Translations under genes and position numbers: made by a program | NCBI GenBank assembly: GCA_014381035.1 | Contig: JACMIS010000852.1 | Coordinates: forward strand, 1-12,288 | DNA: 12,288 nt | Reading direction: 5' to 3' | Source of the DNA: Armatimonadota bacterium | GTDB taxonomy: Bacteria > Armatimonadota > Armatimonadia > Armatimonadales > Armatimonadaceae | Shown: piece by piece, positions 1,223-2,074 of the stretch | How the letters are laid out: each line of letters opens with the position of its first letter | Numbering within the stretch: the stretch's first letter is position 1 | Notes under the pieces: model-generated | Databases searched by the model: none | What the model was told of the DNA's origin: nothing | The model's input: only the letters and a program-made list of their open reading frames with translations

Positions 1223-1945
1223 TCACTGCCGCGCCATCATTTCATCACCGACGTAGGCGATTCCTTTCGTCGGCTCCTGTTCGATGAGCGGCAGTTCTTG
1301 CACGAATTCGTTCCGCCGGACGGGCTTCGCGTGACCGTCCGCCCAGACGAAGCATGCCATCTTCTGGTGCCGAAACTCTATGGTAGGGGAAGGCAACCAA
1401 TCGGACGGGGGCTCGATAGAGATCGTTTCACCGGTCTGACCTTGGACGGGAAAGTTCGGAACGCCCGCGTCGCCAAATAGAATGGTCCCGGACGGCGCGG
1501 CGAGATCGGCGAGAATCACCGGGTTCGGTATGAAACCTGTTTTGAACATCAGGCGACGGTTGACGCCATAGCCCGTTCCTCCGAGATTATCACCGCCGGT
1601 GTACGACGGGCATCGCTGGATCTCTCCCGATTTGATATACGGATAGATGATTCCCCGCGCCTTGTCGAGTTTTTGCCCAGGAGCATCGCGACCGCCGCAC
1701 CAATAAATCAGACTGTTGTATTGATACAGGGGGAGTGTTTCGTCGTAGTCCTGGGCATAAAGCAGAGTCGCCATCCCGATCTGACGCACATTGGAGAGAC
1801 AGGACGATTGCCGCGCTTTCTCCCGCGCCTGATTGAAAACGGGAAACAAGATCGCGGCAAGCACGGCGATAATAGCGACGACGACAAGTAGTTCGATCAG
1901 TGTGAACCCGTACTGAACGGATTTTGTGTGCGTGAAGGCACCCAT
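1223..1945 (-). CDS. Prepilin-type N-terminal cleavage/methylation protein (DUF1559-like, H-x9-DG)
   Basis: A 240-residue type IV pseudopilin-like protein. A short basic leader ends at G13, followed by mature Phe14 and the conserved Glu at mature position 5 (E18) in 'GFTLIELL'. A hydrophobic helix of about 20 residues follows, so it should be processed by a PilD-type peptidase and sit in the inner membrane or a pseudopilus. The stretch after the helix (FPVFNQAREKARQSSCLSN) is of the type I associate with Armatimonadota. The C-terminus carries H193-x9-D203-G204, the H-X9-DG feature of DUF1559-like proteins. The start is the ATG at 1945, preceded by AAGGA at an 8-nt spacing. Its leader contains a compact cobalamin riboswitch ending in the ribosome binding region, so synthesis is probably repressed by B12. 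The partner machinery is not in the window. Confidence 0.9.
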   Translation of the reverse strand: MGAFTHTKSVQYGFTLIELLVVVAIIAVLAAILFPVFNQAREKARQSSCLSNVRQIGMATLLYAQDYDETLPLYQYNSLIYWCGGRDAPGQKLDKARGIIYPYIKSGEIQRCPSYTGGDNLGGTGYGVNRRLMFKTGFIPNPVILADLAAPSGTILFGDAGVPNFPVQGQTGETISIEPPSDWLPSPTIEFRHQKMACFVWADGHAKPVRRNEFVQELPLIEQEPTKGIAYVGDEMMARQ

Positions 1946-1959
1946 GGGAGCATTCCTTC

Positions 1960-2074
1960 CCCCGATTTCGCGTCGGAGAAGGCATATTTCCTGCGTTCGG
2001 TACTCGGACTTTAACCGTTGCGCGACAGTGCCGGACTTTCACCGGACTTCCCCGAAAAGGCAGGAGCGATATGC
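1960..2074 (-). promoter_or_regulatory. Compact cobalamin riboswitch (aptamer plus P13 kissing-loop hairpin)
   Basis: The minus strand carries the B12-aptamer core: GGGGAAG, then CCGG-TGAAAGT-CCGG (P4), then ACTG-TCGCGCAA-CGGT (P5 with loop), then AGTCCGAGTACC. A closing P1 forms between 2060-2074 (GCATAT..TCCTGC) and 1982-1994 (GCAGGA..ATATGC). The peripheral P7-P11 part of the long class is missing, as in the short Cbl-II type. After P1, 1973-1978 pairs with 1960-1965 to give hairpin P13, whose loop at 1966-1972 contains CGCGA. This is complementary to TCGCG in loop L5 (2021-2025), giving the expected kissing loop. The P13 3' strand runs into the GGGGGAAGGA ribosome binding region (1954-1963), so ligand binding should hide the ribosome site and repress translation. 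Confidence 0.88.

What the first reader, a model, noticed from the sequence alone, without database searches (positions are those of the whole stretch)
1223..2074. A B12 riboswitch controlling a pseudopilin gene
Cobalamin riboswitches normally control B12 transport, synthesis or B12-independent isozymes. Here the first gene is a prepilin-type (DUF1559-like) protein, followed by a cobalamin-binding protein. Either the pseudopilin takes part in B12 capture or uptake at the cell surface, or a prepilin paralog was inserted between the switch and its older target. Either would be a link I do not know to be described.
Basis: inference. Interest (0 to 1): 0.75.

Follow-up and report, generated by a model that had tools for sequence, protein, structure and literature searches.

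The report
Vitamin B12 switch controls pilin gene
A vitamin B12-sensing RNA switch sits directly in front of a pilin-like surface protein gene, and the same arrangement recurs across a whole bacterial phylum, in places beside B12 uptake genes, which suggests that these bacteria use a pilin-like protein to obtain B12.

Summary
In detail: an AdoCbl-II riboswitch (2064-1990, minus strand, 52.8 bits, gathering 36.5) ends 44 nt before a DUF1559 prepilin gene (1945-1223), followed by a BtuF-like gene (1156-140). It is not a local accident. In the 291 genomes of the relative G001's phylum (Armatimonadota), a prepilin homolog is the first gene after 211 of 304 listed cobalamin switches, in 199 of 246 switch-bearing genomes. 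Other switches there precede known B12 genes. DUF4465, a family with members shown to bind B12, occurs in 6 of 291 genomes, in all 6 directly behind this pilin. In other lineages BtuF, BtuD and BtuC follow the pilin. Switch-pilin and switch-TonB receptor rarely share a genome (3 of 199 against 11 of 39); 123 of 199 switch-pilin genomes show no TonB plug, 76 do. I conclude that the pilin belongs to the B12 regulon and probably serves surface capture or outer-membrane delivery of B12 in place of BtuB. B12 binding and filament formation are untested. Ten searches of open papers gave no description. The BtuF position is lineage-specific; switch-pilin is the conserved unit.

The parts
1990..2064 (-). 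AdoCbl-II cobalamin riboswitch aptamer; L5 loop UCGCG at 2025-2021
   Evidence: Rfam RF01689, 52.8 bits, gathering 36.5; L5 read by eye from the sequence
1955..1982 (-). Probable expression platform: hairpin (arms 1982-1973 and 1965-1955) whose 3' arm holds most of the pilin's Shine-Dalgarno sequence and whose loop (1972-1966, CGCGAAA) can pair with L5
   Evidence: Sequence read directly; hairpin present in the minimum free energy fold, -15.6 kcal/mol, but z -0.35 against shuffles, 72 of 200 as good; kept in L001 with an A-U to G-C double change, and with 4 kissing pairs in L247
1223..1945 (-). Prepilin (type IV pilin-like N terminus, DUF1559 start, H-X9-DG motif at H193...D203-G204), 240 aa
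   Evidence: Pfam, NCBIfam TIGR02532 34 bits over 16.3, AlphaFold mean pLDDT 92.5; H-X9-DG is a recalled motif name, residues conserved
140..1156 (-). BtuF-like binding protein, 66 nt behind the pilin gene, probably co-transcribed
   Evidence: PF01497 59.3 bits; same order in L001/G001; no terminator-like site between the two genes in a consensus scan, whose only such site lies inside the pilin gene

Best explanation
A B12 off-switch controls translation of a pseudopilin that belongs to the Armatimonadota B12-acquisition regulon. With B12 scarce, the L5-L13 kissing contact does not form, the Shine-Dalgarno sequence is free and the pilin is made; with B12 present the hairpin hides it. The pilin, processed by prepilin peptidase and assembled as or onto a filament through the secretin-type machinery of these cells, captures B12 itself or displays surface B12-binding partners, and hands B12 across the outer membrane to BtuF and BtuCD, the job that the TonB-dependent receptor BtuB does elsewhere. 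Shown here: switch, gene order, conservation, operon partners, rarity of switch-TonB receptors beside switch-pilin. Inferred: off-direction, filament, capture and outer-membrane delivery.
For: In 166 genomes with both a listed best pilin homolog and a listed switch, that pilin lies -5 to 438 nt behind a switch on the same strand in 154 (which merges). 211 of 304 listed switches, 199 of 246 genomes, have a pilin first; with switches over the family cut-off alone 191 of 277 rows, 179 of 223 genomes. Of the 17 misses I re-scanned 6; 5 have a cobalamin-clan match just upstream of the pilin, 1 over its cut-off. Other switches in the phylum precede canonical B12 genes. Of 89 pilin loci with enough sequence, 20 (window included) have a BtuF relative in the following gene run, 10 with an ABC ATPase, 9 with a permease, 4 with CobU; a cluster of secreted proteins follows in 22 others (examples confirmed by Pfam). 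DUF4465 in 6 of 291 genomes, 6 of 6 behind this pilin; DUF4465 members bind B12 and are otherwise linked to TonB receptors (PMC13398666). Switch-pilin and switch-TonB receptor: 3 of 199 and 11 of 39 genomes. No Plug in 123 of 199 pilin genomes, yet a secretin in 141 of 141 sampled.
Against: No B12-binding domain is recognised in the pilin; the solved relatives by sequence are pilins over the N-terminal part only, and the fold matches are weak. The tyrosines enriched in switch-linked pilins (GYGYNxxY) are not all kept in the window copy (GYGVNRRL). 76 of 199 switch-pilin genomes have a Plug domain, among them 2 of the 6 with DUF4465 (G083, G084), and 3 have both switch-pilin and switch-TonB receptor. 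Many pilin genes look monocistronic: in 31 of 89 loci a crude gene caller found no same-strand gene within 250 nt. The exclusion test is not corrected for kinship and completeness of the genomes was not given. The switch-linked pilins are not one clade: 5 label changes on the tree. The platform hairpin is no more stable than shuffles.
Confidence: 0.55

Rival explanations
1. Foraging adhesin: the pilin has no direct role in B12 transport; under B12 starvation it helps cells attach to B12-producing neighbours or surfaces, and uptake is by other proteins.
For: Many pilins look alone under the switch (31 of 89 without a same-strand partner within 250 nt); type IV pilins commonly serve adhesion (established knowledge).
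Against: Gene runs with BtuFCD and with DUF4465 and the rarity of switch-TonB receptors beside switch-pilin point to the transport step itself.
Confidence: 0.17
2. Secretion helper: the pilin is a pseudopilin of a type II-like pseudopilus that exports or surfaces the PEP-CTERM and DUF4465 proteins; these do the capturing.
For: Secreted proteins follow the pilin in 22 of 89 loci, some with PEP-CTERM ends, one a DUF4465; a secretin was found in 141 of 141 sampled genomes.
Against: 67 of 89 loci read have no such protein in the run behind the pilin, and 20 have a BtuF run instead, with no overlap between the two sets.
Confidence: 0.2
3. Accident: a prepilin of a large paralogous family landed behind a cobalamin switch whose real target is BtuF.
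For: Prepilins are abundant here (first-look candidates of about 0.5-3.4% of a rough gene count in 12 genomes); 14 of 304 switches do have BtuF directly behind them.
Against: 211 of 304 switches have a pilin first; the best homolog of the window's pilin is the switch-linked one in 154 of 166 genomes.
Confidence: 0.02
4. The pilin is regulated by B12 for a reason unrelated to B12 acquisition, for example motility, DNA uptake or surface remodelling tied to methionine or nucleotide status.
For: Type IV pilins have many roles (established knowledge); there is no direct binding evidence.
Against: Where there is gene company it is often B12-specific: BtuFCD, CobU and CobT, DUF4465.
Confidence: 0.06

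Closest known systems
BtuB-BtuG B12 uptake loci of Bacteroides (PMC10404256: listing with start of abstract, and 12 passages seen)
   Same: B12-regulated surface capture proteins including a beta-propeller, with BtuF and BtuCD in the pathway
   Different: Here a pseudopilin stands first behind the switch and a TonB plug domain was not found in 123 of 199 such genomes; the one partner propeller modelled here is closest to designed six-bladed propellers, whereas BtuG2 is described as seven-bladed
DUF4465/BtuJ B12-binding proteins (PMC13398666: abstract, Results part 1 of 2, section 16 and a term search seen; PMC12751083: abstract and passages seen)
   Same: A DUF4465 gene stands in the same switch-pilin run in 6 of 6 Armatimonadota genomes that have one
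   Different: The published neighbourhood is TonB beta-barrels, plug domains, ABC transporters and propellers; words beginning with pilin, prepilin or Armatimonad do not occur in the held text of that paper
E. coli type BtuB/BtuF/BtuCD uptake
   Same: Cobalamin riboswitch control (established knowledge); binding-protein gene
   Different: No TonB receptor among the 10 window proteins scanned; a pilin in its place
DNA-uptake (competence) pili and T2SS pseudopili (recalled, no call)
   Same: Pilin-like N terminus; idea of moving a cargo across the outer membrane with a filament and secretin
   Different: Regulated by B12; mechanism not shown
DUF1559 / H-X9-DG prepilins
   Same: Sequence family, H-X9-DG motif (recalled name)
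   Different: Genomes hold 9 to 261 first-look prepilin candidates (rows shown) but mostly one listed switch, so most members cannot be switch-linked; no function is given for the family in Pfam's description

Membership tests
AdoCbl-II cobalamin riboswitch (RF01689) | Covariance-model score over the gathering score | tested here: met
   52.8 against 36.5 bits
AdoCbl-II cobalamin riboswitch (RF01689) | L5-L13 kissing loop with a regulatory hairpin next to the start (recalled feature) | tested here: inconclusive
   L5 UCGCG is complementary to loop CGCGA and the hairpin overlaps the Shine-Dalgarno sequence; kept in L001 and, with 4 pairs, in L247; but no energy support over shuffles and only three related sequences compared
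AdoCbl-II cobalamin riboswitch (RF01689) | Binds adenosylcobalamin | not testable with these tools
   needs in-line probing
Type IV pilin / pseudopilin | Class III prepilin motif and hydrophobic N-terminal helix | tested here: met
   N_methyl 34.8 bits, TIGR02532 34 bits, helix 16-66 in the model
Type IV pilin / pseudopilin | Pilin fold of the whole protein | tested here: inconclusive
Type IV pilin / pseudopilin | Cleavage and assembly into a filament | not testable with these tools
   needs experiment
DUF1559 (PF07596) | Score over the curated cut-off | tested here: met
   30.9 against 23.3 bits, profile positions 2-41 of 268 only
BtuF (NCBIfam equivalog NF002894) | Score over the curated cut-off | tested here: not met
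   25.1 against 234 bits; so only BtuF-like (PF01497 met)
TonB-dependent B12 uptake locus | TonB-dependent receptor in the locus | tested here: not met
   none among the 10 window proteins scanned with Pfam; window's genome not available
TonB-dependent B12 uptake locus | Cobalamin switch control and binding-protein gene | tested here: met

The most novel reading that the evidence does not exclude
A B12-regulated pseudopilin is the general outer-membrane B12 acquisition device of the phylum Armatimonadota: a filament-based, TonB-independent vitamin uptake route in which pilin and surface-anchored corrinoid-binding partners capture B12 and deliver it through the outer membrane to BtuFCD.
Probability: 0.35. 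Interest if true: 0.93.

Novelty: new variant of a known kind. Interest (0 to 1): 0.8.

Why it matters
How diderm bacteria without TonB receptors get a molecule as large as B12 through the outer membrane is open (recalled), and the DUF1559 prepilins, numerous in these genomes, have no function in Pfam's description. A phylum-wide link between one prepilin family and cobalamin riboswitches makes both questions testable: it names the gene, the inducing condition and the expected phenotype. It also adds a pilin to the genes that a cobalamin riboswitch can stand before.

Tried and rejected

Counting limits. Match tables show only about the best 150 rows, so counts are for listed rows. In the first-gene tally 161 of 211 pilin rows rest on coordinates of pilin hits, 50 on sequence read by profile; 8 of 304 rows were too near a contig end and 2 were left unclassified. 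Three TonB-receptor rows (L147, L164, L075) were assigned by hand because the match began outside the -60 to 700 nt limit; plug domains further downstream (G214, G265, G288) were not counted. The 39 genomes in the exclusion test are the 47 switch genomes without switch-pilin minus 8 whose only switches could not be read. For the 55 'other' first genes the longest ORF was taken, some of which look wrong. Of the 95 pilin loci for operon reading 6 were cut, one is the same locus twice (L130, L251), and they were picked for spread, not at random. L212, clustered with BtuF, has no Pfam match and is left out. In one search the candidate number for G225 was a placeholder of mine and is not used.

Full report
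Observation. On the minus strand the window holds an AdoCbl-II cobalamin riboswitch at 2064-1990 (52.8 bits, gathering 36.5). The pilin start codon is at 1945, with 44 nt between. The 240-aa product has a class III prepilin motif and the start of DUF1559. 66 nt behind its stop begins a 338-aa BtuF-like protein (PF01497; far below the BtuF equivalog cut-off), which by eye has no signal peptide.

The switch probably acts on the pilin itself. Directly behind the aptamer a hairpin (1982-1955) has most of the pilin's Shine-Dalgarno sequence in its 3' arm, and its loop CGCGAAA is complementary over five bases to the aptamer's L5 loop UCGCG. In L001 the same hairpin carries an A-U to G-C double change with the loop unchanged; in L247 a stem is again kept and four kissing pairs remain. 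The hairpin is not more stable than shuffled sequence (z -0.35), so this rests on pattern and three related sequences. It is the design expected of a translational off-switch (established knowledge of cobalamin riboswitches); the direction was not measured.

How widespread. The close relative L001 (titled Armatimonadota, genome handle G001) has switch, pilin and BtuF-like gene in the same order. Of the 291 genomes held for its phylum, 246 have a cobalamin switch at E <= 0.001, 223 over the cut-off, and 249 have a homolog of the window's pilin at E <= 1e-25, mostly one among many prepilin candidates. The tables list the best pilin homolog for 171 genomes; 166 of these also have a listed switch, and in 154 of the 166 that pilin lies -5 to 438 nt behind a switch on the same strand (merging, which overlap by 11 genomes). 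Of the 17 genomes that miss (5 without a listed switch), I re-scanned six: five have a cobalamin-clan match just upstream of the pilin, one over its cut-off and four below; the sixth, G005, has none. Reading the remaining switch loci (classified) gives the tally for 304 listed switches: pilin first 211, TonB-dependent receptor 14, BtuF 14, other 55, too short 8, unclassified 2; 199 of 246 genomes have switch-pilin. With switches over the cut-off only: 191 of 277 rows, 179 of 223 genomes. A rough chance level, from prepilin candidates in 12 genomes, is 0.5-3.4% per gene, that is, a handful of 304.

These are true B12 switches: Pfam on 55 first genes of the 'other' class finds anaerobic and other ribonucleotide reductases, MetE, CobT-type phosphoribosyltransferase, ExbB, FecCD, CobU, CbiB, CbiX and BtuR/CobO among others; some of the 55 ORFs look wrongly chosen.

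Operon company. I read what follows the pilin in 95 loci (89 with at least 400 nt; chosen for spread, not at random, one locus read twice). In 20, the window included, a BtuF relative is in the following same-strand run, in 10 an ABC ATPase, in 9 a permease, in 4 CobU. Pfam confirmed nine examples: three BtuF, two ABC ATPases, two FecCD permeases, CobU and CobT; a tenth (L212) had no match and is not counted. In 22 other loci a linked cluster of secreted proteins follows, several with PEP-CTERM ends. One (L256) is a DUF4465 protein (PF14717, E 8e-53) similar to PDB 9hmu, the DUF4465 protein D5EK, for which the paper describes a B12 complex. In 31 of 89 no same-strand gene was called within 250 nt.

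An unselected test. DUF4465 is a corrinoid-binding family by experiment (PMC13398666: abstract, Results part 1 of 2, section 16 and a term search seen; PMC12751083: abstract and passages). In the 291 genomes it occurs in 6, and in all 6 it lies on the same contig and strand directly behind the pilin that is that genome's best homolog of the window's pilin, 249-281 nt from hit to hit. Five of these pilins have a listed switch, the sixth (G083) a sub-threshold one (30.7 against 36.5 bits). In the published survey DUF4465 neighbours TonB barrels, plugs, ABC transporters and propellers; words beginning with pilin or Armatimonad do not occur in the held text. Two of the six genomes, G083 and G084, do have a Plug domain.

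Pilin instead of BtuB. Switch-pilin and switch-TonB-receptor rarely meet: 3 of 199 switch-pilin genomes against 11 of 39 readable others (Fisher 1.5e-7; kinship not corrected). 123 of 199 switch-pilin genomes have no TonB plug domain at E <= 1e-5, against 15 of 39 others (p 0.008); 76 do have one, so the pilin is no strict marker of absence. A secretin was found in 141 of 141 sampled genomes, from which I infer an outer membrane.

Another phylum. In 199 Planctomycetota genomes, of the 30 best-scoring switch loci (one with only 144 nt behind the switch) 13 have a TonB receptor, 3 a BtuF and 3 a DUF1559 prepilin (L316, L319, L336) in the gene behind the switch; a fourth prepilin (L328) lies further on. 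So the link exists outside Armatimonadota but is a minority there.

Evolution. On a tree of 131 pilin rows (128 different; 111 switch-linked, 19 unlinked, 1 undecided) the label needs 5 changes against 19.0 in shuffles: few origins or losses, not one clade. The window's pilin groups with those of G017, G018, G016 and G019, all labelled switch-linked (G017 by its sub-threshold match). The second gene varies here: BtuF in the window and G001, an A2-family secreted protein in G016, BtuF 3.6 kb downstream in G019. Equal longest-contig lengths of 13 pairs of pilin and BtuF hits in the protein database suggest shared contigs, not adjacency; one of them is G019's contig.

Conclusion. It is shown that the switch-pilin unit is real, widespread in the phylum and stands in the B12 regulon. 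It is inferred that the pilin serves B12 acquisition at the cell surface; I put this at about 0.85. The specific mechanism, capture and delivery across the outer membrane in place of BtuB, I put at about 0.35 to 0.55, with secretion of surface partners and adhesion to B12 producers as the main rivals. No paper found in the ten searches listed under Tried and rejected was seen to describe it.

Noticed in passing
window 10-64 and 116-170: A 55-nt inverted repeat (96% complementary, 51 nt between arms) that overlaps the 3' end of the BtuF-like ORF; looks like a REP- or MITE-type element.
   Followed up: partly
window 140-1156: The BtuF-like protein has by eye no signal peptide, whereas several BtuF relatives in other switch-pilin runs start with leader-like stretches.
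   Followed up: no
L253:2099-2743, L259:1264-1899, L132:2860-3540, L232:784-1440, L052:559-1245, L073:2100-2654 and others (alignment A2, 13 sequences): A small secreted family (pattern W-x-G-x-G-S-N ... V-x-D-F ... A-F-G-Y-R-W-D-G), several with PEP-CTERM ends; the members scanned match no named Pfam or NCBIfam family apart from the anchor signal. First gene behind a cobalamin switch or behind the pilin, and a look-alike behind a switch in Planctomycetota (L327). A candidate B12 surface protein.
   Followed up: partly
L205:4736-5779, L201, L206, L211, L198: Proteins with a 'TPPTGYRTFSLGLSGSVVAISPSGKLAVA'-like start as first gene behind the switch in genomes without a listed switch-pilin; L205 has a PEP-CTERM end. 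Possibly propellers like the L122 partner, not tested.
   Followed up: partly
L316, L319, L336 (Planctomycetota): Cobalamin switch before a DUF1559 prepilin in a second phylum, 3 of 30 best switch loci.
   Followed up: no
L042 (G005): BtuF-like gene followed by the pilin, reversed order, no switch found at E <= 1.
   Followed up: no
L182, L068, L078, L228: ExbB-type genes directly behind cobalamin switches (four MotA_ExbB matches among 55 first genes; these loci named by eye), fitting TonB-driven B12 uptake in other members of the phylum.
   Followed up: no
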